Below are positions 36,207 through 58,913 of a stretch of DNA of 64,000 bases, one piece after another. The notes beneath the pieces are model-generated. The model searched no databases, had not been told where the DNA came from, and saw nothing but the letters and a program-made list of their open reading frames with translations. Source of the DNA: Owenia fusiformis (lineage: Eukaryota; Annelida; Polychaeta; Sabellida; Oweniidae). Where the stretch lies: NCBI GenBank assembly GCA_903813345.2, contig CAIIXF020000006.1, positions 22,141,936-22,205,935 of the forward strand, written 5' to 3'. The position numbers and the translations under genes are program-made. Each line of letters begins with the position of its first letter. The stretch's first letter is position 1.

Positions 36207-39200
36207 ATGTCATTATATTTTTGTAGTTTCTTATTTGCTGTGTCAGTCGGTGAGTAGTAGTTTTTTCAATTCTTAATCAATCATTTACATGTCTCTCCAT
36301 TTATTTCCATTTATTTTAGTTGACACACGCTTTGCTTGCGACTGCATATTTCGACTTTCGGCTAACAGATTAACCTACTATTTCATGACCAAATCATTTA
36401 AATATGAATGGAAAAGTGTCATAGATCAATATCTAAGTATTAGGCGTTTTTTGGGGCTGCTGTTACACTTGACATGTGACCAGAAGTCAAGGTCATTCGA
36501 AGGATCAACGGTCAGTATCTCAGTATCTGGCGTTTTTATCAATTCAAGATCATCACAAGGTCAAACGTCAATATTTAAGTATTTGGCGTTTTAAAGAACT
36601 TGGGGGGATGTTGTGACCCTCAGTGACCCATGACTTGTCGACTTGGGGTCAAAGTCATTACTGATGGGCCAATGTCACTTCAAGGTCAAAAGTCAATAAC
36701 TAAGTATTAAGCCCTCTAAAGCCCCCGGGCAAGTTCATCACAGGAATCAGAAAAGGTCAAAAGTCAATAGCCAGTTGTACTTAAATGTAGCAACTTGTTT
36801 TCTAAGTCATTAACATTCCATTAAAAAGAAAATGTAATGACCCGAGGGCGCCCCAGGGGAATGACTAACTAACTATGTCATGTATGTCCCGTGTGGGAAT
36901 CGAACCTACAGTAGGACCCTTGGGCCCAAAGATACTCTGTCAACTGAGCTATAAAGGCTTAAGCCACTACAGCTGGACTGTAGTAGCAACTTGCTATCAA
37001 GGGTCGTAACACTATCTCCCCTTTGAAAGGACCACGCCCTCGTGGTCAGCCCTGCTTTCCCTAGCACACACGGGCGCAAAGGATACAACCAATGCTTTGA
37101 TCCCACATCTGACACCAATGTAATGACCCGAGGGTGCCCCATGGGAATGACTAACTAACGAGCATAGTGTAACAAGCCAGATAGAGAAATTGAAAGAAAG
37201 TGTGCTAAATGCAATGCCCCGTGTGGGAATCGAACCTACATGTAGGACCATTGGACCCAAAGTCTGATACTCTACCAACTGAGCTATAAAGGCTTAAGCC
37301 AAGCAACTTGCTATCAAGGGTCGTTACAAAAACATTAGGTTAATGACTTCAATCAGTAATCATCAGTCACGTTGACAAGTTTTTTTCATAAAAGAGTTAC
37401 TTCACTAATCCCCACCTGGTTATAAAGTCTTTATAACAAAATCAGTCAATAGTATAAACGCCAAGGGGTCTAATAATCGAGTGAGAATTCCTCACTTCAG
37501 CAACCAGGACGTAAAAAGGCCATAATATGAAGCAATCAAGACGTTTTGAAATTTCCCAGATAACGTTCTTTTTGCCGAAGTGAATTTGGTATATAATGGT
37601 TTTTATTCAAAAACTAATGATATTATTCCTATTTTACCTATCAAATGCTTTTTGCATATCCTAATAACTATTATATTAGTTTTTTGGCAAAGTAAATAAT
37701 TGTGGGGCTCACACAAGGGTCATCTTTATTGAAGACTTTTCCGTACTGGTATATATCACTTTAAGAGCAAGAGCAATGAATTGTGATTATCAGTTGAAAC
37801 AACAAAACAAACACATAATTATTATATTGTTAAAACATTTGCACCCGTGTAGCTCAGCGGTAGCGCAGGTACCTCTTACGCAATAGGTCCCGGATTCGAT
37901 CCCCGGTTCAGGCAAGACTAAATTTGCTTGTTTGCGTGAAGTACTTCAGGGTGTTTGACTGAGTGGTCCGCAACTCGTACAAAAGGCTGTGGTGTGTACT
38001 TGTATGTCTATGTATAAGTGCACATAAAAGAAAACAGGGCTCCTTCAAGGAGGGGTTTCTGGGTCTATCTTCTATCTTCCATGTTAATTACGTAAATTAT
38101 GACCGTATATATACGGGACATACCCAAGAGGTATTGCTCACCTTCATTGGTGGTAAACAAAATACAAAATACAATACAATACAATTAACAGATGAAATTG
38201 TGTTAAACTTCGTGTTTTTTCAAAACATCACTAAATATGAAAAAAGGCTGTTAATAAAGTTGATCCTTGTGTGGGGCCTACAATTATTTACTTTGCCAAA
38301 AAATGATATAATGATAATTGAAATGCTTAGAAAAATTGAGTAGGTAAAATTGGAATATTATTATTAACAACAGTGACTTTTGAATTAAAATGGCATTTTA
38401 AGGTCAGAAATATATAATTCTTTACCATTATTGTTTTTAATAAAAATGACCACACCCAAATGGACTATCATATATATTATTGAAAAAAAATCTCATCTTT
38501 TTGACGGTTGCACCTTGCGGCAAGCCGTTTAGCCCTTTCGTGTAACCTTTTCGACTGCAGTAAAAATGAATAGTCCATTAATGTACCAATCTATAATGAA
38601 TATGGGTTACTTCATAGTAAGCTACCTCAACATCGGTTTATGGAATTTTCTTTAGTTTTGGCGCACACTAAATGGTATATTCAAGAAATGCTGATATTTC
38701 AGGAAAATGAATGTCTTTTCAGTTTTCCAAATTTCTTCTTCAAGTTTCTCAATAACACTGGATTGCCATTGACCTCTTAGTACAGATATATTAATTAATG
38801 GAAGACAATGTAATGATACTTTCCTGAAAAAGTAAGGAAAACACGCTTGCCTTCATACCTTATTTTGTACCAGAAAATAACATGTGCAGGTATAGCAATT
38901 TTTCAAATGTGTTTTCTTCCCACCAGTAGCTTAAATACCTGGACAGACGATGAACATTTTGTTGCACATTTATGTTCCTATACTGTATCTTCAGTGCAAT
39001 GTGCCCCAAGCAGTCAAATCATCAGTGGTGTGGAGGTAAATAAAGGAGAGTTTCCTTACACACTTTCACTGCAGAGATTTAACGCATCGACAGGATGGAG
39101 TCATGTCTGTGGTGCCACTCTGATCTTCTTTGAGTATGCAATCACTGCTGCGACATGTTTCCTTAGATCGAGGTACATGTAGGCTATTGTAGTATTGTAT

Positions 39201-42194
39201 TGGTATCGTATCGTATCGAATTGTATTGTCGTTTGCAATTCTTCTCAAATTCCAAAACTGTGATTTCGAAACGGAGATGAGTATGACATTTTTCTTTGTA
39301 ATCATAAGTGATGAGTAAATTGTAATTTGCCCATGTGATTGATTTGTTATCTTAATATCTTTCCTCCAGTTTATGTGACGAGGAATTTATTTGAGTCTGT
39401 TTTTCGGATAACTATCCCATCTTTACTCGGAAACTAGTAAGATCAATCCTTACGGTATTTAAGAGCACGGCATGAATATACTGTTCTATTTCGATTTCAG
39501 CGATCCAATAGAGTACAGAGTAGTTGCTGGACTACATGAGTTAGCCAACACCCCAGAGCAACAGTTCTTGAGCGTTTTGACCATAGACATAGTGAGTTAT
39601 CAAAACGAGGTTCTTTCCTAATTAACAAAAAGTGTACGTTTCTTTTAAATATTTTCACCCAAGTCCTGCAAAATGATAAAAACAGATACAATGGTTCATT
39701 GTCCACAAAGCCTATCAATCTGCAACAAACCGTTTCTGTCCTGAGATGATTTTGGAAGAATGGTTTTATGTACTGTATAAATATGATTCGTGTTTATTAT
39801 TCCAAAGTGAGAATTTCAAGCCTTGGTCACATTTGCTCCGATTTTCACTACGGCGCCCGGCCGATTGAGTATTTTGTTCAAAATTGAATACAATATTGAA
39901 CAAAACACGTACTCAATCGGCCGAGCGCCGGCCGATGGATCGGAGGAAATGTGACCCAGGCATTAGTTAGTTATGTGACCCAGCCATTAGGGAGCATGTT
40001 GTACTATTTAAATCGTGTTCTATTGTCTTGACAGAATCCAGCATTCTCAAATGACCAAGCAAACGGTTACCCAAATAACATCGCAGTCATCAGACATCAG
40101 GCTGCCACATACAATGCCTACGTACACAGTATACCATTACCAAGTGCAGCAACCTTCTTCGACCAATTCTGTAATATCACCGGATGGGGCAGATACGAAG
40201 GTATTACACAACAATATAATAGTCTTGCCCAAGTCTGTATTATCTTTTATCTATCTTGATTTTCAAATATGTGAAAATGAATAAAAAATAAAAAGTCACA
40301 GCCCTGGGCAAGGCTAATCTAATGCCTGGGTCACATTTGCTCCGATTCATCGCCCGGCGCCCGGCCGAGATTGAGTGTTTTGTTCAAAATTGGATTCAGT
40401 TTGGAACAAAATCACTGCTACCCACCTAGTAACACAGACGTATCGTCAGTGTATCATGGCTGAACTACTTCCGGGATTTGAATTTGGTAAGATATTTTTA
40501 TTTCTCGATTTACATCTACTTATAAGTCACGATGTGGATTATAATTTGGCTCGAAGTCGTATGTGGTGCTATTTCTTAGTTCTATTACCTACAGTTGGTG
40601 GTACTTCAGTTCAAAGTATACAATAGTTTTCACATGTGTGACCGATTAGCACTGTTCCACAACTAGTTACCTTGACGGAACGTCAATGTAACAAAACGGA
40701 TGAACTTCCTGCTTACGAGTTTTATAATTTGCAACGCTCGGTATGCGACGTCTTCTCGTAACATATTTTTAAATATAGCTTAAGGTGACATGATACTTAA
40801 CAGGAAATTACAAAACAGGAAGTGACAAAAAAAATTGCATTTTTAGACATTTTTTGAACAAAGATAACAGAGTTCTGTTTTGACCTCCAGTCAATTGAAC
40901 TATTTCCACATATTATTTACATGATACACTGGTACAACTTTTGAAATGTTAGAAAATTGTCTGAAGCAAAAATGGCGGTCATAAAAAGGAAAATAGATCG
41001 CTTTTCAAATCAGTTTTTTCAATTTTATGATATCAAACTTTCAAAGATTGTATCATTTATAGCAATATATTGGGCACATTTTCTGAAAAATTCAAAAGAT
41101 TCTGTTCAGTGACCTTTCCTAGCTCCTTCTTTTAGCTATTTTTCAGTCACATTTTCAGAGGGCTGAAAAGGTTATTTCATCATGTTTAGGGTCATGTTTA
41201 GGAACATTGGGATCCTGGACCTGTAAATATGTGGCACTAGTTGAATTGACTGGAGGTCAAAACAGAACTCTGTTATCTTTGTTCAAAAAATGTCTATAAA
41301 TGCAAAAGATTTTGTCACTTCCTGTTTTGTCATTTCCATGGCACCTTAAGCATACTAAGTAGTTAGGGGCGTCCAGTTAACAGGGTAAACGTACACATTC
41401 TCTCTACTCCTATATCCCCTACACTTTTCACTATCATCCCAGTTGTGAAGAGTGTTACGTTTAACCCTTGACGGAATAACTCCCAACATCCAATCACAAT
41501 CTACAAATAAAATATACGCGTCAATTTCAAAGGAGGGGCAGTGGCCCCTGTTCTACGACGGGGAGAGGACAGGATCATCAATGATATAGATTGTAATGCA
41601 GCATACCCATCCATCAACATCAACTACAACTACCACGTATGCTTTGGGGATGGTCAAATCAGCGCGTGTGGCGTGAGTACAGATTATGTTCAATCAGGAT
41701 AGCCTACACGAGACCCACGACTCGTGTACCAGTGTTCGTTTTATTATCAAATTCTATTTCTACAAATATTTTATAAAAGGGAAAATAACATTATAATAAA
41801 TTACCAAGTTTGGATAAGTCCTTGTAGTTTGAACAGTTTTAAGAAAACAACATACATGCAAAATATACACATATATAATAATGTACATATTTTAGGTACG
41901 ATTATTATAGCTATCTAGTAATAAACCTGATTAAACCATAATTGACTAATTGCATTTTTTATCACTCTGTATATATATCCTTGGTATATGAAAATTATAA
42001 AAATGAAAAATTGTTATACATTCTAGCTTGACGAAGGTGGTCCATTGATTTGCCGAGAACCCGAAGGAGCCCAAGCCCCAACCGTGGCTGGTGTAAGTTC
42101 CTTCAATGACATCAGCTGCTCAAGTGGCCCATCAGTCTACACAAGGGTTTCATCCTACCTAGCCTGGATATGCTCAATTACACAAAGTTGCTGA
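36207..42194 (+). CDS. Secreted trypsin-fold pseudoprotease A, 261 aa, 6 exons
   Basis: Exons: 36207-36249, 38995-39172, 39501-39591, 40035-40200, 41533-41672, 42027-42194; phases close on TGA. The first 14 residues (MSLYFCSFLFAVSV) look like a signal peptide. The mature part follows the S1 peptidase fold: IISGVE at the usual IVGG position, HVCGATL, ITAATCF, NNIAV, FCNITGWGR, CFGDGQISACG and DEGGPLIC. All three catalytic positions are changed: His57 is Thr68 (AATC for AAHC), Asp102 is Asn119, Ser195 is Glu209. The residue before IISG is Gln, not Arg/Lys, so trypsin-like activation is unlikely. Disulfide cysteines are kept, so the fold is probably intact and the role is binding or decoy. First-exon choice rests on equal length, phase and type with gene B; intron 1 is 2.7 kb and repeat-filled. 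Confidence 0.85.
36405..36790. repeat. Degenerate repeat with AAGGTCA strings
   Basis: Diverged units carrying AAGGTCA(A/T)(A/T).GTCAATA..TAAGTATTNGGCGTTTT recur about four to five times in intron 1 of pseudoprotease A. AGGTCA is the nuclear-receptor half-site; whether it acts as one here is not shown. Confidence 0.5.
36832..37010 (-). mobile_element. tRNA-derived SINE, copy 1
   Basis: On the minus strand GCCTTTATAGCTCAGTTGAC (A box) and GGTTCGATTCCCACACGGG (B box) form a tRNA-like head. The unit goes on to CATTCCCC..GGGCGCCCTCGGGTCATTA. The 3' acceptor strand does not pair with the 5' end, so this is not a working tRNA. Copy 2 follows at 37117-37326 in the same orientation. Confidence 0.7.
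37117..37326 (-). mobile_element. tRNA-derived SINE, copy 2
   Basis: Same structure as copy 1: GCCTTTATAGCTCAGTTGGT then AGAGTATCAGAC, and the B box GGTTCGATTCC. It is slightly longer because of an AGATAGAGAAATTGAAAG-type insertion. The tail GGGGCACCCTCGGGTCATTA matches copy 1. Located in intron 1 of pseudoprotease A. Confidence 0.7.
37841..38186 (+). mobile_element. tRNA-derived SINE of another family, with ACAAT tail
   Basis: The head GCACCCGTGTAGCTCAGCGG TAGCGCAGG has an A box, and GGATTCGATCC at about 37892 is a B box. A 200-bp body follows and the unit ends in AAATACAAAATACAATACAA, a short-repeat tail typical of SINEs. Cloverleaf pairing is poor in the T arm and the acceptor stem does not close, so it is not called as a tRNA gene. 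Confidence 0.7.
39820..39961. mobile_element. GC-rich foldback element, family copy 2
   Basis: GGTCACATTTGCTCCGATTT and CGGCGCCCGGCCGATTGAGT at the left mirror ACTCAATCGGCCGAGCGCCG and GGAGGAAATGTGACC at the right, around an AT centre. Same family as 2435-2572. In intron 3 of pseudoprotease A. Confidence 0.75.
40324..40412. mobile_element. GC-rich foldback element, family copy 3, truncated
   Basis: It begins GCCTGGGTCACATTTGCTCC and reaches the AT centre (TTCAAAATTGGATTCAGTTT) but the second arm is absent. Directly after it comes copy 2 of the hairpin-plus-ATG unit. Confidence 0.65.
40429..40486 (+). other. Hairpin-plus-ATG exon-like unit, copy 2
   Basis: AGTAACACAGACGTATCGTC with AGTGTAT is a diverged form of the copy 1 palindrome. 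ATG at 40456 opens a 31-nt frame (MAELLPGFEF) ending at GTAAGA in phase 1, and the following ATATTTTTATTTCTCGATTT matches copy 1 for over 60 bases. It lies in intron 4 of pseudoprotease A. No partner exon was recognised. Confidence 0.4.
40779..41351. mobile_element. Terminal-repeat element, 573 bp, long arms
   Basis: The arms GCTTAAGGTG...AAACAGGAAGTGACAAA...GAACAAAGATAACAGAGTTC...TGACCTCCAGTCAATT (40779-40910) and their inverse (41245-41351) are about 130 bp with indels. The bases ATA adjoin both ends, so the target duplication is 2-3 bp. Non-coding, in intron 4 of pseudoprotease A. Confidence 0.75.
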
Positions 42195-42595
42195 TGAATA
42201 TATAATTCAAAAATGTCATTTTGTGGAAAAAATTTTAAATCAACTTTGTTGTATCTTAAATCATGAATAAAAATAGAACTCCGTATATAATTTCTCTATG
42301 AAAAACCAAGTTGGCTCATACCTTAAGCTTCCCTCTCGGGAAATTGGATCCCAAATGTCTCTTGAACAGCAATAAAACTGACCACAATGGTCCTCTGCTC
42401 AAGTGTCAGTTGAACCATATTTGCAGACTTATTCCACAGTAGCTTCAGTTTTTTCCAATTCTTATTACTATAAGAGACTTACTCAGCCCCCAATTCACTC
42501 CATTGTGTAAGGCCTGTTCCCTAAAAATATGCAACGAAAAAGAATATTAGCTACACATCGATTGCCACACAGGATAATAACCTGGCACACCATTA

Positions 42596-42765
42596 ATTTT
42601 ACCACCTCTCATAATGGTTATAATTGCTCAGTCATCCATGACTATTCCATAATGATCAAATTAAGCTTTTTGCTGCTACCTTTGTATTTCAAACAAATTG
42701 CTCGGAATTCTAGAAATCTGGCTATGAAGTTTGGTATACTTTTTGTGGATGCCCTGAAGAATGAA
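42596..42765 (+). repeat. Dispersed repeat shared with 49196-49392
   Basis: TTTTACCACCTCTCATAATG and ATTGCTCAGTCATCCATGAC through GAATTCTAGAAATCTGGCTA to GAAGTTTGGTATACTTTTTG recur diverged at 49196-49392, downstream of the second pseudoprotease gene. The end TTTTTTGTGGACACCCTGTA of the second copy resembles a mariner-type terminus. Confidence 0.65.
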
Positions 42766-43310
42766 GCACACACATATTGACACAATTTATTAGGGATCCT
42801 CTACACATGTATGAATATAATTGCTTTGAGTGTCACACATGCCTTAGTTTGGAAAATATCACGAATTCAAATATAAAGTTCGCAAGGTGCGCACATGGTA
42901 TCCACACCGCTTGTCCAGTCAGGTTGTCTGTATCACGTTCTCACTTGCGGAATAGCACTAACCTTCGGAATATTGGAGTTGTTCACTGCTAAAAATTTAA
43001 AACTTTTTCCAGAAGATAAATGCATTAGAAATACACAAAACTAGATATACTGGATAGAACAGTGAACAATCATTGCAGCAGTTATCCAGAACCGCATCCT
43101 TCGTCCAAGGGTATTTCACTTCTTTCCATTGAATTTAAGTGAAAATGAAGTCCTTTGAAGAAGGATACCAGAATAATATAGGCTAATGTAGGGAGGCCAT
43201 AATTGAAATATCTAGAACCAACAAAAAGTTCTGAAAAGCAAGCCCGGTGTCCTGTTTAAGAGCATATTACCTACTTAGTATTGAAAATGTATTCTAGCAA
43301 CACTATCCTA

Positions 43311-44156
43311 CACTCCCCTCCATAAGTTTGGCAACCTTAGCTCCCCCATTGAACTACGTGTTAAAGCCTCTTTACTTTTGAATTTTTATTTACTTAACCT
43401 GCGATGAAAATACTTATACTATTGATTGAAACGTAATTTGACTTTATTTCCAATACCTCCAAATGTTCTCAATTTTTTTCCTCAATTACAATAAGTCCCC
43501 AAAATTGATGATAAATTTGATGAATTTTTGAAAAAAAGGTTTGCTGCAAGTCATATGACAGAATATCAATCACTCCGAGTTCTTGCAAAAATTACAAGTT
43601 AGGTAGGCAATTGAATTTGCTAACTTTATTTCACAAAAGATTGATACCCTTCTTCAGGATCAGCAAAGTTATAGGTCTTTAAAGTCAAAATCATTTTTCA
43701 AAAAAGGTCTGCCATTGAAATAACACAGGAGGCGAAAGATGATTTTCAAAAATGACTTTGAAGCTCTGTAACTTTAGTATTCATCAAGTAAGCTAAACAC
43801 TTAGTGTACAAAAAAGTTAGACAATTCAATTTTCTATATAAAAATATTTTTGCTGAATCTTTTATTGAATAGATATCCTGATTTCTGATTTGCCCCGAAC
43901 CCACCGTTTCCCATTGGTTTACATGGGAATGACGATTTTCAAAAATTCATCAAATTTATCATCAATTTTCGACCTATTGTAATCGAGGGAAAGAATTGGG
44001 AAAATTTGAAGGTATTGGAAATAAAGTCAAGTTACGTTCCCATCAATATTATAAGCTATTTCATCACAGGTTAAGTGAATAAAAATCCAAACGTAAAGAG
44101 GCTTTAACACGTAGTTCAATGGGGGAGCTAAGGTTGCCAAACTTATGGAGGGGGTG
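43311..44156. mobile_element. TA-flanked element with 220-bp inverted arms, 846 bp
   Basis: The ends are CACTCCCCTCCATAAGTTTG and, inverted, CACCCCCTCCATAAGTTTGG. Arms of about 220 bp (43311-43535 and 43935-44156) enclose about 400 bp with another inverted pair (GATTTTCAAAAA/TTTTTCAAAA). TA flanks both sides (43309-43310 and 44157-44158). It interrupts the dispersed repeat also seen at 719-915, which is continuous there. No transposase. Confidence 0.85.
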
Positions 44157-45361
44157 TAAATGAATCTACTTGTTGAGACTCCATTAACTTGAGTTCTTCT
44201 GAGAAAAAAAGGATTTCAGCAAAGGTGCATTGGCTTAACATGAGGTTGACTATTGACTTTGCATCGGGATACCATCATGTATGTCAACCTTCATTTGCAT
44301 ATTAAATTTTTACCCAAAGTTGATTTTTTGGCACTCCAGCTAAATCACTTCATAAATCCCTAATGATAGTGATTACGCAGTAAAACCTCGTACTTTTACA
44401 TATTCATACGTAAGAAAATGACAAATGGACTAATGTGAGAATAAGCCCATTAATGCGGTTAATAACGGAGATATAGCTTGTTCCAAGGGTTCAATTTTTG
44501 GACCACACTTATTTTATATACGTATATCTCAGACACCCCGTAGCCTATGATAGTGACTGACATCATTGTACACTTCGGAATCGGAAATTCGCTGACTTCT
44601 GCATGTCATAGTTCATTTCTCTTTTGCTCTTCTTACAGCAAGATGATATTTTAAGCTACATTCTGACTCCTAAATACTAGGCTGTTAAAGTATGTAAACT
44701 TTTTGTATTCTAAAAGTTCTAGTCAATAACCTAAGCCAGTTTCCAAAGAGGTGTCATTCTAGGGGATTAGAAAATTGGTACAGTCACAAATATGAAGTGG
44801 TATTTCAAACCTGAAACATTCTGAATAAAAAATGTGCTAGATAAGTCTAACGATCATACACTTGTGAAATGCCAACGTTTAAGTAGAATTTTTACTTTCT
44901 TTTTGGCACAAACTTTTGCAGGCATCATGTCTTTCTGAAAATCTAAGTAAAGCATACAAGTTCGAGTGATCCCAGTATCCGAGTGGTCCCAATAAATGCT
45001 TTATGGTAGTCGTACTTTAAAATGTATTGAATTTCAAATGGCCAGTTGTTGGACGTTGATGTTAACGATCTTTATCTCATCGGGTACTTTACCAGATGTT
45101 GTCTTAAACTTTTTCTCGTTACAGCCCAGATAAAACACAATGATATAGTTTTGAGCAGGCTTGTGCAGATAGCTGCATTGTAGGCAAGTAATTTTATGTT
45201 CTGAAAGTATGACAATAGGATTCATAATTAATGTATTTTATTATATATTTTCGGTAATACCAGTTACATGATTATGTTATTGCATATTACAGGTCTGTAT
45301 TGAGTATTGTTAAAAAACAAAGCTGAACCTTTAAAGAAAGAAAAACATCAGGAAAACAAAA

Positions 45362-47617
45362 ATGTTGTTGGGAACTTACGTTATCCTCGTTGCAATTTCA
45401 ATCGGTGAGTGCTAATTATATGATATATAAATAATAGTTTACAGAATTAACCAAATCTTGAAATGAGATATAATTTAATTTATGCAGCTATTATTAAAAT
45501 TGAAACAACCAGCGTTTGGGAAATTAAATGATTTGAATTTTTCCATGATTCTTTCAGTGAAATGTGCTCCGAGCAGTCAAATCATCAGTGGGGTGGAAGC
45601 TATAAAAGGAGAGTTTCCTTCTATGCTTTCACTGCAGAGATTTAACTCAGCAACTGGATGGAGCCATGTCTGTGGTGCCACCCTGATCAACTTTGAGCAT
45701 TCAATCACTGCTGCTACTTGCTTCTTGCAATCAAGGTAAGCCCGTACCATGCCAAATACAGTATGACGACTTCTGCTATGAGTCAAGTTATGGTTTTCCC
45801 CATAAATAAATGAGTTGGCCACAAAAATGTAGGTTAAACCGTCATCCGGAAGTTGATTTCGCGAATGCACCTTAGTGGACGAGGAATAGAAATAGATCGA
45901 TTATGTCCAATTATGGTGGCTGTGAAACAGTTTTGAGTGCCCCCTCTTCTGATTGTTTCAAGTACCGCTAAAACTAGTGGTTAGAGTTAGATGCTTTGAG
46001 TGCCCCCTCTTCTGATTATTTCACGTATAGCTAAAAATTGTGGTCAAAGTTAGATGTTTTGAGTGCCCACTCAATGAAATGTTTCTGTTTCAGCAACGCG
46101 ACAGAGTACAGAGTTGTTGCTGGGCTACATGAGTTAGTCAATACTCCAGAGCAACAATTCTTGACAGTATCGACCATTGACATAGTGAGTTAAGAATACG
46201 TATCTGATCACAATATTAATTTGTAGATGGTTTTGGGATAGTTGTCCAAAAATTAACGTTGATATGTTTCTTTTAGAACCCGTCATTTGCGAACGATCCT
46301 GCGAACGGCTACCCCAATAACATTGCGGTCCTTAGGCACCAGGCCGCCACACGCACTGCCTACGTGAACGTCATTGCTTTGCCTACGACAGCTACATACT
46401 ACGACCAGTTCTGTAATATCACCGGATGGGGCAGATACGAAGGTAAAGTACTCGTCAAGTAGCTGAAAAGACGTAGTAACGATGTATTTGACTAACATAT
46501 TTAAAGATCGTGCTTTAACTACATGCTCGCGTAATACAAAAAGCGATGAGCCTGTGTAAAACGAAACAAAATGCATATTCATATTTTAGGAGGTGAGCCG
46601 GCGCCTGTGCTGCGACGTGCCATGGACAGAGTGATCAATGATCTTGATTGCAACGCAGCTTATCCCACCATTAACATAAACTACAACTATCATATATGCT
46701 TTGGAGATGGCCAAATCAGCGCATGTGGGGTGAGTAAATCTAACACGAACACCTAATTTGGAAGATGCGCTACACTACCTCATCGTCACAACCCCTGGAG
46801 GTGGAGTGGATAGGGGATCCAGAGACATGACGTAAGACTAGATTAGGCCTACAGAACACGGACAGTAAATTTGGCACCAAAAAATAGTTATTGCTATCTG
46901 CACCAAATTCATTTTTGACTTGTTATGCATGCAAATGCTTTTCTAAACAGCGAAATAACTCTCCAATATGCATGCATGACATTATACAGGGTGGTCCAAA
47001 AAATGGGACACTCGTATTTCAAAAATAAATATTGATTTTCTTGATGAAAAAATGTCATTATATACCAGTGGATAGGGAATTTACACATCTTTAATTTGGT
47101 ATATCGTAAGTTCAAATTTATTATAATGTCTGTCAACCAGCATCCATAATATAAATGACGTCATTTTAGTTTCAAAACGGGTTTTCCAAAACTTGCAAAA
47201 ACCAACTATTTACATAAACAGACGTTCAATATGTCCACCGTTTTGATCATTTGTAGCCCTCAATTTTTGCCTCAACTGGCCAATAGCATCATTGATTTGC
47301 TGTTGAGAAAATTAATTTTACTGTAGGTATAACAATACTTTGTTGTTTTAATAGTCCCTTTTCATATAACCTAAAAGTTTATTATTCCTTTGACTAAGCT
47401 TCTTAAAAATTTCGTTTACAGTCATGATACATACATTTTCACATTCTCTCAACAGGTTGATCATGGTGGTCCGATCATTTGCCCAGAACCACAGGGAAGT
47501 CCAGCTATTGCTGGTGTTAACTCGTTCAATGACATCAGCTGCCAAAATGGTCCTTCCGTCTACACCAGAGTGTCGACATACCTGACCTGGATATGCTCAA
47601 TCACGCAGAGTTGTTAG
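45362..47617 (+). CDS. Secreted trypsin-fold pseudoprotease B, 259 aa, 6 exons
   Basis: Exons: 45362-45404, 45558-45735, 46094-46184, 46277-46442, 46590-46729, 47456-47617, ending in TAG. The first five exons match gene A nucleotide for nucleotide in length (43, 178, 91, 166, 140); the last is 6 nt shorter. Signal peptide: MLLGTYVILVAISI. S1 landmarks: IISGVEA, HVCGATL, ITAATCF, NNIAVL, FCNITGWGR (an N-glycosylation site, as in gene A), ICFGDGQISACG, VDHGGPIIC. The catalytic triad is Thr68, Asn119 and His209 instead of His, Asp and Ser; Asp208 (the 194 position) is kept. The activation-site residue is Gln22. A catalytically dead, disulfide-stabilised secreted protein is inferred. It is the tandem duplicate of the gene ending at 42194, about 3.2 kb upstream. 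Confidence 0.92.
46985..47320 (-). mobile_element. Mariner/IS630-type transposon fragment with transposase C-terminus
   Basis: It begins at TACAGGGTGGTCCAAAAAAT, a terminal repeat. On the minus strand about 47310-47210 encodes QQQINDAIGQLRQKLRATN and DQNGGHIERLFM before TAA; the NGGHIE ending is typical of IS630/Tc1-type transposases. The rest of the coding region is absent. In intron 5 of pseudoprotease B. Confidence 0.7.
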
Positions 47618-48510: not shown

Positions 48511-48824
48511 TTGGGATATTTCTGATACTTAGCCGTTTCAGGACTTCAAATATACCCATGCATATATATGTGTAGCTGACAGCGAGTATCAATAAAAAAA
48601 TTGAAAATAGTAGTGTAATTCATTCTATAGCGACGCAGTATGTATTAAACCTATCCCTGAGATATATTTTTAGAAATTGTCGTTGTTATACAACGTTATA
48701 TAAAATTGTAACTGAAGCAAAAAGCTTGACTTACTCTAACATTGGCTTGCAAGCGCAAATATGGTTCAACTGACACCTGAGCAGTAGAGCCAACAAAAAG
48801 TTCTAAAAAGCCAATCCAATGTAC

Positions 48825-48960
48825 TGTTTAAGAACCCCTATTCTTACTATTGAAAATTGATCTAGCAATACTGTCCCACGTGAATCTACTTCTTGAGACT
48901 CAATCAAATTGAGTTCTGAGAGAATGAGGATTTCAGCAAGGGTATATCGACTTTACATGG
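48825..48960 (+). repeat. Dispersed repeat, family copy 3
   Basis: TGTTTAAGAACCCCTATTCT TACTATTGAAAATTG and GTGAATCTACTTCTTGAGAC match the copies at 719-915 and 43250-44260, same orientation. An inverted match to 42396-42425 (ATATGGTTCAACTGACAC) lies just upstream. Confidence 0.6.
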
Positions 48961-50881
48961 AGGATACAATCATACAATTGATTTCAAAGCTGCGTATCGT
49001 CATGTAAAAGTTTCAGTGTCAACAGGCTCTTGGGATCCAATTTCCGGAGAGGAAGGTACCAACAAAAAGTAATGGAAAAGTATGCAAAAAGTGTGAAGAA
49101 AATGGAACAAATTTGAAATTGAACACTAATAATGTTTTAAACACAAAAAAACATTAACTGTGTCGTTCCTACTTGAATGCTTGACTTAGCACAGTGTTGA
49201 TTTTACCACCTTTCATAATGGCTATGATTGCTCAGTCATCCGTGACAATCGCATAATGATTTAGGTACCATTTGATGGAGAACAAATTAGGCCTTTTACT
49301 GCGACCTTTATATTTTCAAAATATTGCTCAGAATTCTAGAATCCTGGCTTTGAAGTTTGGTATACTTTTTTGTGGACACCCTGTACTTCTATTTTCACAA
49401 TTTTATTGATGTCAGTTGTCAACATATATGAGTATATTTGAAGTCCCAAATTTAGATTAAAAAATAACCGTTGTCGAAGTTAATCATTAATCCACACCGT
49501 ATTGGGTTGTTTTGGTTTATATCACAAGCCAATGAGGTGTGTGTTAATGATTAACTTTCCTGTTATCTCAAAATCTGCTTGGAACTACAGTATACCATTG
49601 GATTGCTATGGGAAATTCCTCAAAGAGAAAATTCTTGGGATTAAGGAAGGGGTACCATTTACACAATTTGATAAATCATTGGCATACATGAAATCTTTTT
49701 AAAACAGCATTAATATTATTCAAAAGCGATCGTAATAATGATTCTCAGCCCTCTGAAGTTTGAAAAATAACAATACCTGGGTGTTAATCCATAGATACTC
49801 CTTGAAAATGAGAAATATTTTTTAGGATTATATGGTGCAATCTTATAGTCAATAAAATGTTTTAAAGTGGAGCGATGTTTGTTGGATGAAAAACACAAGC
49901 GAAATGCATCAAAAAGCTCCCCAGATTCATTCTACAAACAACTCGCGGTCCTTTACAAAACAATAACGGTTCATGGATTTGTTACTAGAACTAATAAAAT
50001 GTAATGCAACCGTTTTTCTCTAAATTCCATGCATATCAATTTTTACAATCGTTTAAGTGGATTCACCGACCGTTTTTCAAATTCCAAAAATTTATTTTAG
50101 AAATACTGTTTCTCTATTAAAAAAATTGATTATTTTATAAAGTGTCGAAAACATGTGCTCTGTTGAAAGCCAATGACGAAACTAAAAACAAAAAAAATGA
50201 AAACCTAAATGGTCCGAAAATTCGAACTAAAAAATCAGCATTGCACTTGCAAGATCATTTTTCTATCCAAACAGTTCAGCATTTTGCGTGATACTAAATA
50301 CTTCCTAAAACTTGGAAGAATGGTACAAAGTGTCCCATTTTTATTGCCAACCCTGTACTGTACATCTGTTAAAATTGAAACATGTTTGTGACAGCACTGA
50401 CAGTGACAGTCCCTCTCAATGGATTTCGTAACCGGATGAGATATTGTATTAAAGAATCGATTTTGAATTTTGAAATTTTGCTCAATAATTATGTAAAAGG
50501 TCTGATGTGAAACAGTTTATGAATTTTAGAAAATTGCAACAAAAACAGGCTTTCATAAATAGTCTAAGGGGGCTGGGCATTTGAAGGGGAGTGAACGTAT
50601 GTCAAAGAATCGTCATGTATTCACCATTGAAACTACATTAATCCACATAATGTGTAGCTAGTATGGATAGATTAGACCTCCAATAGACGTGTTGCTTTAT
50701 AACCTTGGATGCGAAACAAAAACAAGAAAAAATTAAAAAATGAATTCCGAATTAACGTGATTTACAATAAATTCGTGTTAAATAAAACAAAGTTAATAAA
50801 CTTTATACCGTATACTGCTGACGCAACGGTTGTGTTATAGCCTCATCGTTCTCAATACTGGAAACAAGTACAGCTAGGGTT

Positions 50882-53671
50882 ATGCAAACACGGTTTAGCT
50901 CACGTTCTTTCAAGACCGTGCGACGGTGTCTATCACCGGGTAAACTACTCTTATTGGTTGCAATTGGAATCTTAGTTGTGTTTCAAATGATTTCCAATAA
51001 ATCGGACAAGGTATTAAAGAATTATTCACTTTATTAGTTTTAACGAAGCTGGGGCAATCGACCCTCCATCACCTAAATAAAAATCAATATTATCCATCGT
51101 ATAAGAGACCAAATATGAATTTCATGGCTATAGAGAATCTAAATGACAGAAACGTTTATTTGCTAAAACTGGTCCTTTGTATCTGGACGTTGACAATAAT
51201 TTTAAGTTGAACAATACACGTCTCAACAATCATTTGACATTCTCTATGCTCTAATTTAAAAGAAAAACATTATTTTTCTTTAGACATACTCAAGTTCTAT
51301 ACATGTGACCGCCACCGAAGAATTGGATCAATCTACAAATGAAGACAGTCAGCATTCTGGCACACATCCTCCAGGTGGCCAGCAGAGAGAAGTAAACATG
51401 GAAATCATGGCAACTGTGCAATCATTATGGAGTGAGCATCCTTACCAAGGAGTGCGATTAAATGATGCTAAGACTGACTTTGAAATAGAAGATGCTTTTA
51501 GTAGTTATGCTATCTATAAACAGGTACTATATTTGAGCTTATATAATGGACAATTTCTGTAAATGTCCATGTTTTTCTATCATTGGGAATCATGGCTTTC
51601 TATCAGTTCCTTAGTAGTTTCTAGAAAATATTTCTATTTGAAAAACAGAAAGATGTAATGAGTATCAGAATGTGTATCCATTCATTTTATTTAAACAATA
51701 GTAGACCCTAATATAAAAATATTAATAGCATCAATGAAACAGCATTGATTCGCTCTGAAAGTGCTTTGGATGAAATTTCAAATTTGGTTAGATTTTATCA
51801 AAATCGGATAATCAACGATCAAACCCGGAATAAAACACAATAAAACAAGGCACACATGGTCTGATAGGTATATTGACTGGTTTCAAATTACTAGCTTGTG
51901 CATTTTTCAAAATGATGTACTAAAATAATTTTCCTCATCCTAGTACTGACTAACATACTACATGGTATTTCTGTAGTTTCTGAGTTTCTCGTAATTAACG
52001 CCAATCGTCATTTTGAAAGTGATTTCATTTTTTGAGAAATGATATCGATGGTGGTGACACTTCTTCCCCAATTCTCAGATAAACATGAATAAAAATGCAA
52101 TTATCAAAGTGAAAAAAAATCTTAATGAATTCGAAACAAGAAATGTTTAATTTTCATGTAATGCAGAAAGCGTTTTAATGTAAAATAGTCACTGAAAGTG
52201 CATCCATCCTATGTCGAAGAAAAAACTGTCATGGTAGATGCATTTTATCATTATACATTTAATCACTTTTTGACTTTAGATAGATTGTCCCTTGAAAGAG
52301 AGGTATGGCCATTGGAAGGACGGAGGCTGGGATATTTGTGTTACACCTCCATTTGGACTTTCCGAGGATAATTGCATTGTTTATTCATTTGGGTATGTAT
52401 GAAGTTATCCTGGTACACCATTCTATAGTTTCATTCATTCAACGTCTACTAAGGGCCGCTTCTCAATGCGCAATGATTTGTCTTTTCATATCCAAAGACC
52501 ATGGTTTGCTCGTTTCCGTGAATGTAACTTACAATATATGGTTTTGTCATTTGAATCCCAGTTTTTTTTTGTAGGATTGGACTCGATTGGAGTTTCGATG
52601 ATGCTTTGGCGAAAAGAAAGAGATGCGAGATATATTCATTTGATCCCACGTAAGTGCAGTGTGCGATCTGCCAACCAATAATCGTGTAATTTTCTGCTAT
52701 TTCTCAACATCCTGATGACAAATAATGAAAAATTAAGATTGACCTCCCTCCGGCTAACTCTGTATTATTAATGATATGTATATAATAATGTGCTAATAAT
52801 TCACTTTCTGGTTGATACCTGAATTCCGTCATATCCAAAACATGAGTATATTAGAAAATACATCATGTATATATACATGTAGTCTTGCTTCAACACTATG
52901 TACTTGTTTCAACACAAGTAAGTTAGGGTCACAAGAGCGTGTAGCTTGACTACATTTATTTAGAATGTGGAATTTCAGAGCACAGCGAAATTTGTTAAAT
53001 CATGGTACATTACATCTTGGATTCCAGGATCGGGAAAAAGCGACACAAAAGAGGAGACTATATACATTTCTTTGACATCGGATTGGAGGACAAAAACCGC
53101 AAAAATAGCTCAAAGGGTTTTGAAACTAAAACCTTTGACACAATAATTAAAGAAAATGGACACACAAATGTAAGTCTTAGATAAACTTAATTGTGACATA
53201 TAAGTTGACATTTTCAAGTTTCGGTATTAGAAAACTGTTATTCTCTCTATTTAGTTGCTAGTTTAACTGAAATAGAATAAAAAATTTATAAATAGTGGAG
53301 CTGTCGGTTGGTTTAATGAAATAAAATAAAAGCACGTATTTGTCTTGTTTCAGAAAATCATTGATATGTTAAAGGTTGATATTGAAGGATCCGAATGGGC
53401 AGTAATTCCTAATATGTTCAAAACAGGCATGCTCCACAATATCAAACAGCTCGCCATGGAAATACACACTTTCGGACGTAACACTTCTATTGAATTTTAC
53501 AAACGTGCTTATCGGGCAATGGAAATGTTAGACAAGGCAGGTTTCAGACGCTATTACTCCGAGCCTAATGACCACTGTAGATATTTTTCACCGTTTGATA
53601 CAGGAAGACGACCAGTTAAAAGATGGGGTTGCTATAACGTCTATTACATCAACATCAACTTTGTAAAATGA
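50882..53671 (+). CDS. METTL24-like (FkbM-type) methyltransferase, 338 aa, 6 exons
   Basis: Exons: 50882-51010, 51284-51523, 52280-52392, 52575-52649, 53028-53169, 53354-53671; all phases close on TGA. The N-terminus has a basic flank and one hydrophobic segment (about 21-37, KLLLLVAIGILVVFQM), a type II membrane anchor as in Golgi enzymes. A Ser/Thr/His-rich stem follows. The methyltransferase part has DCPLKERYGHWKDGGWDICV, YSFGIGLDWSFDDAL, CEIYSFDPTIGKKR, HFFDIGLED and the FkbM-type motif MLKVDIEGSEW (238-248). This order matches METTL24 and related predicted SAM-dependent methyltransferases, whose substrate is unknown. The exon 5 acceptor (CCAG at 53027) was chosen because it gives SFDPTIG and avoids an upstream in-frame TAA. 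Human METTL24 is of similar length. Confidence 0.85.
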
Positions 53672-54979: not shown

Positions 54980-57177
54980 CAGAAACGGAACTCTAGCCGG
55001 TATTTGTGGAGATGTGTGAGGGAACAATATATATGAAATCTGTTTCTTTGCACGTCCCCATTCTTACAGGTAGATAGATAACCAAAGCATATTTTTCAAC
55101 GTTATCAACGTCTGACAAGGAATGGATACAATACCTTCTGGATAGCAGCACTCTGAGCGTCCAGATACGACGCTTAAAGCCACGTGTCGTATAGAATGAT
55201 CCGCTGTTATAAGATGATATTGGCAACGTATTTCAATTTCCATGGACTTTAAGAAGTGACTTGCTAGAGATTTCCTTGCTAGTTGGCTGTTAAATAAACA
55301 TTGACATCAACAGAACCACCCAAATTCCTTACTGATACTCGATGTGTATACAATACATTATGGACTGATATAATTAATATTCATATATTAAGTCTGTTTC
55401 AAGTAATCATCAAGTCACAAATGTAACCAATTAGTGACAGGGGCGTAGCCAGCTTTCAGTCAGGGGGATGTGATTGCTAAAATGTTTTCGGTTTTCAGTC
55501 AGGGGTGCGATTGTGGCATAAACGAGCCAAAAACATAAGATTATTTTGATTTTTCAAAATTTTATGAAACTTCCTTCAAAATTGAGCTAGACGCTTCAAA
55601 TAATTGAGCATTTTAAAGCTCTTTCCTTCTTCTATCTCAGATTTCTATTTTTGGTTAGGGCACCCATCGCACCCCCGCCCCCCTCCCCTGGCTACGCCTA
55701 CGACTATTTAGTTGGAACTTTTTGAACAAAAAATCTAAAACTACACGTACATTGTACAGTATATTGTAGTCTTTAAGCGGGAAATTTTACTTTGGCGTTC
55801 TTCTTAACGTTTTAATTGCGAGAAAGCTAATATTTTAGATTTTTCAACCTCATTTTTTATATTAATAGTGACTGAAAATCATTTGATACACTTGTCAGAT
55901 AAAAAAAACTAATGTTTGCCATACAAGACATTTTGAGTACATTTTAAATGAGCCTTTGAATAAAAATATTGCTAATTTCTTTAATTTTGATTGTGAGTAC
56001 ATTTATGGTGAAAATCACCAATTGGAATTAGACGCAGAGAACAGAATTTGCAAAAATATTCGTCACATTTTCTTCTTTTGGGGTATTTTCCGATACCTAA
56101 ACATCAAGCTCTTGCTAAACTTACAATCGCTGTACAAAAAAAACTTGCCAGCACGTTTCCACGTGCGCACTTCTCTTGAAATTCTCAGTTTCTCAAAGAT
56201 GGATTATTCTGTACAGTCTATTCCTGAAAGAGAACTTAGATGCAGAAAATAATCATGATCAATGTGTGTTTTCTGAATAAGGTTTACGATGCTTTGTTTT
56301 TTCTTTGAAATAAAAAAAATTAAATAAAAAAAGTTTACGATGCTTCTCTAGCCAAGGTCATGAAATATTGCAATCGCTGCCTCACAGCTTCTTGCTTAGA
56401 AGGGTTAATAGTTATGTTGGAAAACGGATTTGGCTGGCCAGCTTCTCTTCAAAACTACCACTCTCGTCAGCGTCGGTATGCAGTTATGATTTGGGGCACG
56501 CCCAAATCAATATCTAATGATTTGAGCTTGCCTCCGTGAATACGAGCATAACTGCATACTGACCTGATTGTGATCTCGGTAGGTACGATCCTGATTTGTA
56601 CTGGGTATCCGATAGTAGTGTACTGTCGGATCAGATGGCCTTGTCAAGAAATTAAAATTCCATATGAATGCAGCCAGCAGGGAGGGACTGGGAGTTCTGT
56701 AAAACCATGGGTTTTCAATTAGTGGTAAAACCAAATAATATCCCTCCTATGCAGGTTCTCACCTCCCACCTACACTCCATCCACAATTTAATTGAATAAA
56801 CCGGATAAACATTGGATTTAGTGACACCTCATCAACGTTCCAATCTGACACCTAATTATCAAAAAGCCTTTCCACAATACTAGTGGCACTGGCAGCTCCA
56901 CCACTGAATGATGTATAGGCTTACCTATATGCTTTTATCAGCTAATATAGCTTATAAACGGTCAATCATGGCTCAAAAGAGGCCACACTAAGAAAATAGC
57001 TTGTTTCAATGAATACGTTATTTGATTGTAACCACGTTGACCGATGACCGATACTCCCTCGTGGGTTTAACTCCTTTTGCAAAATGTTTTAACTTCGTGA
57101 ATTATACAACGCCGTCATTTGAGATATGCCAAGTTTCCGGTTGCGAACATTTTTACATTTTTGAAAGAAAATTAAAG
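54980..57177. other. Spacer between the orphan gene and CDC26
   Basis: No further gene was recognised. It holds a possible poly(A) signal (55293), a hAT-like short element (55438-55702), and a small inverted pair GTATGCAGTTATG/CATAACTGCATAC at about 56474-56562. The open frame near 55956-56252 has no domain, splice context or signal peptide. Confidence 0.5.
55438..55702. mobile_element. hAT-like short element
   Basis: It begins CAGGGGCGTAGCCAGC and ends CCTGGCTACGCCTACG, inverted versions of an end style common in animal hAT elements. TCAGTCAGGGG is repeated inside the left end. No clean 8-bp target duplication was found and there is no coding capacity. Confidence 0.5.
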
Positions 57178-58913
57178 ATGTTACGGAGGAAACCAACACG
57201 TATTGAAATGAAACTTGACGATCTAGAGGAATGGGAGAATGTAAAAAAGGAGAGAGAACAACTTAAAAAGCAAGAGGAAAGCAGTTTAGGTGAGAAATCC
57301 AGATTTGAAAGTTTTGTTACTCTATTATCGCCCACCTCGATATTTAACGGATGAAATTGAGTACCAGTTTTAAGTCTCCGCCAGTACATTGCTCGCCATA
57401 AGTCCATGACACCTGGATTTGCTGAATTGAGGATCCCATGTTAAAAAGAAGAGAATTTTATACAAAATGTAAAACATACAAAACTTGAGGGATGTGTAGA
57501 TATCTAGTCTATCTAGACATTATTGGGAAGTATGAAGTCTCAATATTTGAGTCAAATCACCATGGTCTGGGAATGGTGATAGAAAATCAAGATGTCATTT
57601 ATGACATGGACTTTGTTCAACGTTTCTTTCCAAACTTACTGGCAATTAAGTTACCTGTTTCATTTCCCTATTCTCGCCTAATTATCTCATCTTAGTGACT
57701 TGAAATTGCACAGCTACATTAACAAGAGTCTTATAGTATCCTATTACTCAAAATGTAACTGTAATTGTATCTATTAGCCTCATTTGACCATTTTTATAGA
57801 CTGGTAAGATCCAGTCAGAGTTTTTGCAGTGGATGACATTTTCAGATTTATGTGTACATCAATCTATATGACGACCAATCAAATAGCACGATATGATCAT
57901 GTGATCAATCACAAGCACACATTTTCCAAGAGTTAGCCAATGATGCCTTTTTATGAAGAGGTGATCATGTGCCCTTCTGCCAAAGCGCTGGCTGCTTGTT
58001 TCCAATCCTGGTAAAATTATATGGCAGTACCTTTCGAAAGAAATGTTGACTCAAGTCCGTGATTTATTATGGGAAGCACTGTAGGAATGAATAAAGTGAA
58101 AGTAATCTAATAGTAGTACACATAAAATAGACTTAAAAGACTTAGCTACTACTTTTCCATAAGCCTGAGAAGTACTACCTTTTTATGACCTGACTGCTGA
58201 CTGACTTGCTAGCATTAAAAAAATAGGACTTAGCAAAAGAATTCCAAATCTTCCAAAAGCTAGTTAATATCAAATTAACTGAAAAACTCCCTGGTTTGCT
58301 TTATTTTGAGGACGAATGTCCAATTATATTAGTCACTTTAAACTATGTTTTCACAATTAGATGGCGTTGCTTATGCTTCATGATCGACAAACAAAGCTGA
58401 TAGAGTCTCGTTATTTAGCTTGAGTCTTATTTTTTGATTTTAGTGATTCAGTCAAACCATGAAAAAGGTAGTACACTATTAGCAAGCCAATGATCTGATG
58501 ATGATCCAATGGGGCGTGTTGCAAAAATACATATTCATTCTTTATAAACCTGCCTTGGACTATTTACACAGGGCCCTCTAATTTTTTTCATAATATTTTT
58601 GCACTTATGATTTGAATAAAAGTTCAAGTCAAAATCTTTTGATCACATACAAAACTTATAACCACCATTTTGTTTGTTTGGGTAAGGCTGCAATATTAGC
58701 CAAAGTTGGTGAAACTTAAATATATTGGACCATTTACTTAATATTAAAAGTAGAATATTTCAGTTCCTCTTTAATAGTTTAATGTTTTATCTTATTTTAG
58801 ACAGCCCAGGGTCCAGCACAAAGCCAACAAAAACAAAACAAGAAATAATCCATGAGCGTATTGGATATAACCCACAACCAATTGTGCCGTCTTCCAGATT
58901 AGCATTACATTAG
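57178..58913 (+). CDS. CDC26: CDC26: anaphase-promoting complex subunit, 74 aa, 2 exons
   Basis: Exon 1 (57178-57289) encodes [20 protein letters not shown] and continues as a charged helix to a GTGAGA donor in phase 1. Exon 2 (58801-58913) follows TATTTTAG and reads [27 protein letters not shown] and a short tail to TAG. The N-terminal MLRRKPTR motif is the segment that binds and stabilises the TPR subunit APC6/CDC16 in the APC/C ubiquitin ligase, and the IGY.PQP motif is also conserved (family knowledge). Human CDC26 is 85 aa, so the length fits. The upstream in-frame extension from 57022 is rejected because the ATG at 57178 aligns with the family start. MTRF1L begins 210 bases downstream on the same strand. 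Confidence 0.93.
57389..57604. mobile_element. Diverged relative of the 35676-35913 element
   Basis: Located in the CDC26 intron. It shares GACACCTGGATTTGCT, GTTAAAA.GAAGAGAATTTT, TACAAAATGTAAAA.ATACAA, TCTAGACATTATT and ATGGTGATAGAAAATC with the 35.7 kb copy. The ends are degraded (GCTCGCCATAAGTCCATGAC). Just upstream, at 57319-57338, is the ACTCTATTATCGCCCAC motif also found in the centre of the ZGPAT-intron palindrome. Confidence 0.7.

What the first reader, a model, noticed from the sequence alone, without database searches (positions are those of the whole stretch)
36207..47617. Tandem pair of secreted trypsin-fold proteins with all three catalytic residues replaced, differently at Ser195
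Both genes keep signal peptide, S1-fold landmarks, disulfide cysteines and the FCNITGWGR block, but read Thr for His57 (AATC), Asn for Asp102 (NNIAV) and Glu (A) or His (B) for Ser195 (DEGGP/DHGGP). The activation residue is Gln. Five of six exon lengths are identical between the genes and both frames are open, so loss of catalysis was followed by maintenance and duplication. A binding, decoy or assembly role is inferred. Complete triad loss in two neighbouring, intact paralogues whose 195 residue differs is unusual.
Basis: partly seen in the sequence, partly recalled or inferred. Interest (0 to 1): 0.75.

Follow-up and report, generated by a model that had tools for sequence, protein, structure and literature searches.

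The report
Tandem dead elastase-like proteases, still maintained
Two neighbouring animal genes encode secreted proteins related to the digestive enzyme elastase but lacking all three residues needed to cut proteins, and their pattern of change shows that selection has kept both, so they probably act by binding something; such dead proteases are already well known.

Summary
Observation confirmed. Two six-exon genes (A 36207-42194, B 45362-47617, + strand, introns GT-AG) encode 261- and 259-aa S1 (trypsin/elastase) proteins. In both, His57 is Thr and Asp102 is Asn; Ser195 is Glu (A) or His (B). Nearest solved relative: pancreatic elastase 1. Nearest relatives in the same genome: a tandem pair 4.5 Mb away, one with an intact triad, one with Asp195. 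dN/dS between A and B is 0.145 (dS about 1); if the two copies are equally old, neutrality is rejected for each separately, and their constraint matches that of the sister pair. They look like maintained pseudoproteases, not decaying genes. Corrections: Gln15 also occurs in three triad-intact paralogues, so it does not mark loss; triad loss is not rare: a third gene in this genome has all three residues changed, 13 of 105 residue-195 readings here are not Ser, and 125 of 269 S1 proteins of a beetle have a changed triad (PMC11172050, passages). Most likely role: non-catalytic binding through the retained cleft, as in other S1 pseudoproteases; partner unknown. A new member of a known kind, of moderate interest.

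The parts
36207..36249 (+). gene A exon 1, presumed signal peptide (MSLYFCSFLFAVSV)
   Evidence: read from sequence; donor GTGAGT
38995..39172 (+). gene A exon 2: propeptide CAPSSQ, I16-I-S-G, Cys42, Thr57, Cys58
39501..39591 (+). gene A exon 3
40035..40200 (+). gene A exon 4: Asn102 (NNIAV), Cys136, FCNITGWGR
41533..41672 (+). gene A exon 5: Cys168, Cys182, Ser189, Cys191, Gly192
   Evidence: the acceptor looks weak (tttcaaag)
42027..42194 (+). gene A exon 6: Leu193-Asp194-Glu195, Cys201, Cys220, tail with two further Cys, TGA
45362..45404 (+). gene B exon 1, presumed signal peptide (MLLGTYVILVAISI)
45558..45735 (+). gene B exon 2: propeptide CAPSSQ, I16-I-S-G, Thr57
46094..46184 (+). gene B exon 3
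46277..46442 (+). gene B exon 4: Asn102, FCNITGWGR
46590..46729 (+). gene B exon 5: Ser189, Gly192
47456..47617 (+). gene B exon 6: Val193-Asp194-His195, tail, TAG

Best explanation
A and B are a tandem pair of secreted, elastase-like S1 pseudoproteases. Shown by sequence: full S1 domain, conserved disulfide cysteines, all three catalytic residues and the oxyanion-hole glycine gone, purifying selection between the copies after duplication. Inferred: they fold like elastase, may be cut after Gln15 as their triad-intact paralogues with Gln15 would be (Ile16 and Asp194, the activation salt-bridge pair, are kept), and act without cutting by holding a peptide, protease, inhibitor or microbial/host ligand in or beside the former substrate cleft. 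This would be a decoy or cofactor role like that of protein Z, HGF and the scabies-mite SMIPPs. The partner is unknown.
For: Pfam Trypsin over its full length; best solved match elastase 1, E 8.1e-30; T57/N102/L or V193/E or H195; A-B dN 0.143, dS 0.98, dN/dS 0.145, likelihood ratio against 1 of 109; with equal age of the two copies, 0.113 (A) and 0.139 (B), each rejecting 1 (2 x delta lnL 75 and 65), about the same as the g1/g2 sister branches at 0.13; cleft positions 44 of 50 identical against 133 of 175 elsewhere (permutation P 0.048); pocket residues S189, A190, F215, S226 identical in A and B; recognised modes of S1 pseudoproteases: receptor ligand, cofactor or decoy, scaffold (PMC13194640, passages).
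Against: No transcript, protein, ligand or orthologue in another species could be examined. The cleft-versus-rest difference is no larger than in g1-g2 (35 of 50 against 97 of 173) or in triad-intact pairs (L2-L4 41 of 50 against 117 of 175; L4-L3 39 of 50 against 95 of 179), so it does not by itself point to a ligand in the cleft. Residues 193 and 195 themselves differ between A and B. Without the equal-age assumption the codon model did not reject neutrality for A alone. The fold was not modelled.
Confidence: 0.65

Rival explanations
1. The proteins are maintained, but their role lies away from the old cleft (a scaffold, a surface exosite or a covalent complex through an odd cysteine); the dead cleft is irrelevant.
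For: Position 195 changed radically between A and B (E/H) while the frame is constrained. A, B, g1 and g2 have a propeptide cysteine that the other six modelled paralogues lack, giving 11 cysteines after exon 1.
Against: Cleft positions are kept about as well as in triad-intact pairs. The odd cysteine count is weak evidence: triad-intact L3 also has 11 and L6 has 13 without a propeptide cysteine, and the cysteine may leave with the signal peptide.
Confidence: 0.25
2. Recently silenced, decaying pseudogenes.
For: All catalytic residues are lost; no expression data. A codon model with free branch lengths did not reject neutrality for A (lnL -3016.9 with A fixed at 1 against -3017.0 free) and rejected it only mildly for B (-3019.7).
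Against: Open frames, intact splice sites, pairwise dN/dS 0.145 over dS about 1. In one search the distant sister pair could not place the silent changes between A and B; with equal ages, as duplicates should have, neutrality is rejected for each copy.
Confidence: 0.04
3. Still an enzyme, with a different chemistry at the altered site.
For: Charged or ionisable residues stand at 195; the cleft is conserved.
Against: 195 is Glu in one and His in the other, 193 is bulky in both, and of the three triad positions only Thr57 and Asn102 are common to both, with no general base among them (inference).
Confidence: 0.03
4. An assembly or exon-reading artefact: chimeric copies, or catalytic residues on unseen alternative exons.
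For: Exon 5 of A has a weak-looking acceptor.
Against: Two copies whose introns do not align (five of the 11 blastn matches are exons 2-6; the other six lie in the flanks outside the genes) carry the same changes; each changed residue lies inside an exon flanked by normal S1 sequence and disulfide cysteines.
Confidence: 0.03

Closest known systems
Chymotrypsin-like elastase 1 (CELA1) and the triad-intact elastase-like paralogues of this genome (g2, L2, L3, L4, L6, L7, L10)
   Same: Full S1 domain and the core cysteines; the paralogues also share the C-terminal cysteine pair and several intron positions
   Different: A and B lack His57, Asp102, Gly193 and Ser195; L2 and L4 lack intron 4 and L7 is split differently
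Scabies mite inactivated protease paralogues (SMIPP-S)
   Same: A family of duplicated S1 genes with mutated triads beside active paralogues (PMC4930577 passages)
   Different: A mite expansion of group 3 allergen homologues, some inhibiting host complement; A and B are elastase-like and lie in another animal; common descent of the dead forms was not tested
Insect serine protease homologues (SPHs)
   Same: S1 domain with a changed triad, often without regulatory domains: 102 of 125 Tenebrio SPHs (PMC11172050 passages)
   Different: There Ser195 is mostly replaced by G, T, N, L, V or I, and Asp102 is changed in only 13
Protein Z, HGF/MSP beta chains, haptoglobin
   Same: Non-catalytic S1 domains used for binding; in HGF and MSP the pseudo-active site is the core of the receptor interface (PMC13194640 passages)
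   Different: These have other domains or chains besides the S1 domain (recalled); in A and B only the S1 domain was found

Membership tests
S1 (chymotrypsin/trypsin) family | full-length match to the trypsin domain | tested here: met
   PF00089 over 1-220 of 220, 116.4 and 115.7 bits against a cut-off of 20.6
S1 (chymotrypsin/trypsin) family | core cysteines 42, 58, 136, 168, 182, 191, 201, 220 | tested here: met
   all present in A and B
Active S1 peptidase | His57-Asp102-Ser195 triad | tested here: not met
   T-N-E and T-N-H
Active S1 peptidase | oxyanion hole, Gly193 | tested here: not met
   Leu and Val
S1 pseudoprotease / serine protease homologue | S1 domain with one or more triad residues replaced | tested here: met
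S1 pseudoprotease / serine protease homologue | kept by selection, not a pseudogene | tested here: met
   pairwise dN/dS 0.145; both copies constrained if equally old; not separable without that assumption
S1 pseudoprotease / serine protease homologue | no catalytic activity in an assay | not testable with these tools
   needs protein
SMIPP-like family | common descent with mite group 3 allergen paralogues | not tested
   no mite sequence was compared
Clip-domain SPH (prophenoloxidase cofactor) | N-terminal clip domain | tested here: not met
   only PF00089 found at E up to 0.001; the stretch before Ile16 is about 22 aa including the presumed signal peptide

The most novel reading that the evidence does not exclude
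This genome has repeatedly built pseudo-elastases with an acidic residue in place of Ser195 (A Glu, L5 Glu, L014 Glu, g1 Asp, L012 Asp). A and L014 share Asn102, a bulky residue at 193 and Glu195 on different chromosomes. If these arose independently, which the tree neither shows nor excludes, a carboxylate at the dead site is selected for a specific ligand-binding function, which B then changed to His.
Probability: 0.12. Interest if true: 0.55.

Novelty: new member of a known kind. Interest (0 to 1): 0.33.

Why it matters
It is a clean example of duplicated, triad-less proteases under constraint about as strong as that on their nearest sisters, one of which still has an intact triad. That makes the switch from cutting to binding testable within one small gene clade. 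It does not change the picture of S1 pseudoproteases, which are common in animals.

Tried and rejected
Gln15 as a sign of lost activation: rejected, since triad-intact g2, L3 and L7 also have it and triad-intact L2 and L4 have Phe. Non-Ser195 inherited from one event shared with g1: a clade of A, B and g1 without g2 is rejected by the AU and KH tests (p-AU 0.012, p-KH 0.008) but not by the more lenient SH test (0.18), so g1 and the A/B stem most likely lost Ser195 separately. Glu195 shared by descent with L5 or L014: not rejected (p-AU 0.28 and 0.38), so convergence is not shown. The codon model with free branch lengths was not informative, because the stem is saturated. A genome search for cox1, meant to tell the phylum, found nothing; the organism remains unidentified.

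Papers: searches were seen as listings with abstract starts; passages were read from PMC11172050, PMC4930577 and PMC13194640; no paper was read whole. One search was tied to a guessed annelid species (3 papers, nothing on these genes in the listing). 'Serine protease homolog' with 'all three catalytic residues' returned 0 papers, which shows only that the exact phrases do not occur together in that library.

An odd cysteine as a mark of the A/B/g1/g2 clade: weakened, since L3 and L6 also have odd counts.

Full report
Reading the sequence and fixing splice sites by phase gives two six-exon genes, A (36207-42194) and B (45362-47617). Exon lengths are 43/178/91/166/140 in both and 168 or 162 for the last; intron phases agree and the introns are GT-AG. 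The products are 261 and 259 aa with hydrophobic N-termini read as signal peptides. A tblastn of the exons of A against the window found A, B and one chance-level match (E 0.65), no third copy.

Both match Pfam Trypsin over the whole profile. The best solved relative is chymotrypsin-like elastase 1 (E 8.1e-30; best 60 of 435 matches shown). Aligned to it, residue 57 is Thr in both, 102 Asn in both, 195 Glu in A and His in B, and 193 Leu in A and Val in B, while Asp194, Ile16 and the core cysteines are kept (numbering typed from recall). Thr57 is written ACA in A and ACT in B, so it survived a silent change; 195 is GAA in A and CAT in B.

In the same genome the closest relatives are two tandem genes at C6:17.65 Mb (L001). 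g1 has H57, D102 and D195 with Arg15; g2 has an intact triad with Gln15. A tree of 18 sequences (A, B, g1, g2, L2-L7, L8, elastase 1, and partial sequences of L10-L14 and L17; the other genes and slices fetched were left out) joins A, B, g1 and g2 with 100/100 support and g1+g2 with 99.4/100. In the alignment of 12, L2, L3, L4, L6, L7, L8 and elastase 1 have intact triads and L5 has N57, D102 and E195. Gln15 occurs in g2, L3, L5 and L7 as well as in A and B, so it does not mark loss of function. A clade of A, B and g1 without g2 is rejected by the AU test (p 0.012; SH test 0.18), so Ser195 was most likely lost at least twice. Common descent of Glu195 in A with L5 or L014 is not rejected (p-AU 0.28 and 0.38).

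Selection: 60 of 259 aligned residues and 138 of 259 codons differ between A and B. By maximum likelihood dN is 0.143, dS 0.98 and dN/dS 0.145, with a likelihood ratio of 109 against neutrality; NG86 and YN00 give dN 0.145 and 0.147 and dS 1.10 and 0.95. g1-g2 gives 0.09 (its dS of 3.95 is saturated) and the triad-intact pair L2-L4 0.24. A four-gene model with free branch lengths could not place the silent changes on the A or B branch; it did not reject neutrality of A and rejected that of B only mildly (lnL -3017.0 free, -3016.9 with A = 1, -3019.7 with B = 1). With the two copies given equal age, as duplicates should have, dN/dS is 0.113 (A) and 0.139 (B), g branches 0.13, and neutrality of either is rejected (lnL -3018.0 against -3055.5 and -3050.4; the stem is saturated here too). 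Since both copies share Thr57 and Asn102, this constraint most likely acted after those losses. Between the two gene regions blastn finds 11 matches: exons 2-6, and six repeat-like stretches in the flanks; no intron aligns, in keeping with an old duplication.

How rare is it? I read residue 195 in 105 exons of this genome: 12 genes of the first set (A, B and ten in L001-L009), 13 of L010-L019 (a second L012 copy had no readable exon), and 80 slices L020-L099 (of the slices 77 by script and 3 by eye, the rest from alignments or tblastn output). 92 are Ser; 13 are not (E 3, D 2, H 1, G 3, F 2, R 1, T 1). The list is incomplete and leans to good matches to A or to the Pfam model (searches list only part of their matches). 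Residues 57 and 102 were not read in most slices. L014 (C5:10.96 Mb) has Arg57, Asn102, Trp193 and Glu195, so a third gene here lacks the whole triad. In the beetle Tenebrio 125 of 269 S1 proteins have at least one triad change (PMC11172050, passages), and scabies mites have families of such paralogues (PMC4930577, passages). Acidic residues at 195 are few in the beetle (D and E are among residues seen 1-4 times each) and 5 of 13 here; this is suggestive only, since g1, L5, L012 and L014 were found through similarity to A.

Mechanism. Identity between A and B is 44 of 50 at cleft positions and 133 of 175 elsewhere (permutation P 0.048); the same tendency is seen in g1-g2 (35 of 50 against 97 of 173, P 0.054), L2-L4 (41 of 50 against 117 of 175, P 0.025) and L4-L3 (39 of 50 against 95 of 179, P 0.0008), so the cleft is kept about as in triad-intact genes, not better. 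Pocket residues S189, A190, F215 and S226 are the same in A and B. Together with kept Ile16 and Asp194 this fits a domain that still forms a cleft and binds without cutting. Known S1 pseudoproteases work as receptor ligands, cofactors or decoys, and scaffolds (PMC13194640, passages). Which applies here cannot be told from sequence. A propeptide cysteine present in A, B, g1 and g2 and in none of the other six modelled paralogues gives them 11 cysteines, an odd number that would allow a covalent partner; but L3 and L6 also have odd counts, and the cysteine may leave with the signal peptide (inference).

The kind is well known, so the interest is moderate.

Noticed in passing
L014 (G000 C5:10959500-10963500): Another S1 gene with all three triad residues changed (Arg57, Asn102, Glu195) and Trp at 193; a second copy of its residue-57 exon lies inverted at L014 3002-3073.
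   Followed up: partly
L012 (G000 C6:27545800-27552200): Two tandem S1 copies; one has Asp195 with His57 and Asp102 kept; the other's last exon was not found.
   Followed up: partly
L005 (G000 C2:17280300-17288500): An elastase-like gene with Asn57, Asp102 kept and Glu195.
   Followed up: partly
L013 8648-8797 (+): An elastase-like exon reading TAANC, i.e. Asn for His57.
   Followed up: no
L026 and L027 (C11:20.78 Mb and C1:2.62 Mb): Two closely similar S1 last exons on different chromosomes, both with Phe195.
   Followed up: no
window 43309-43497 and 43971-44158: An inverted pair of repeats, 90.5% alike, between A and B.
   Followed up: no
window 42593-42756 / 49197-49383 and 43213-43308 / 48785-48876: Repeat-like stretches shared by the downstream flanks of A and B, not in the same order.
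   Followed up: no
window 8599-9009 and 9753-10082: An endonuclease-reverse transcriptase fragment and a reverse transcriptase match below its cut-off, probably remains of a retroelement.
   Followed up: no
window 53330-53668 and 57013-57351: Frames matching an FkbM-type methyltransferase and the APC subunit CDC26.
   Followed up: no
window 36890-37300: Twice-repeated stretch in intron 1 of A that resembles a tRNA-derived repeat on the minus strand (seen by eye).
   Followed up: no
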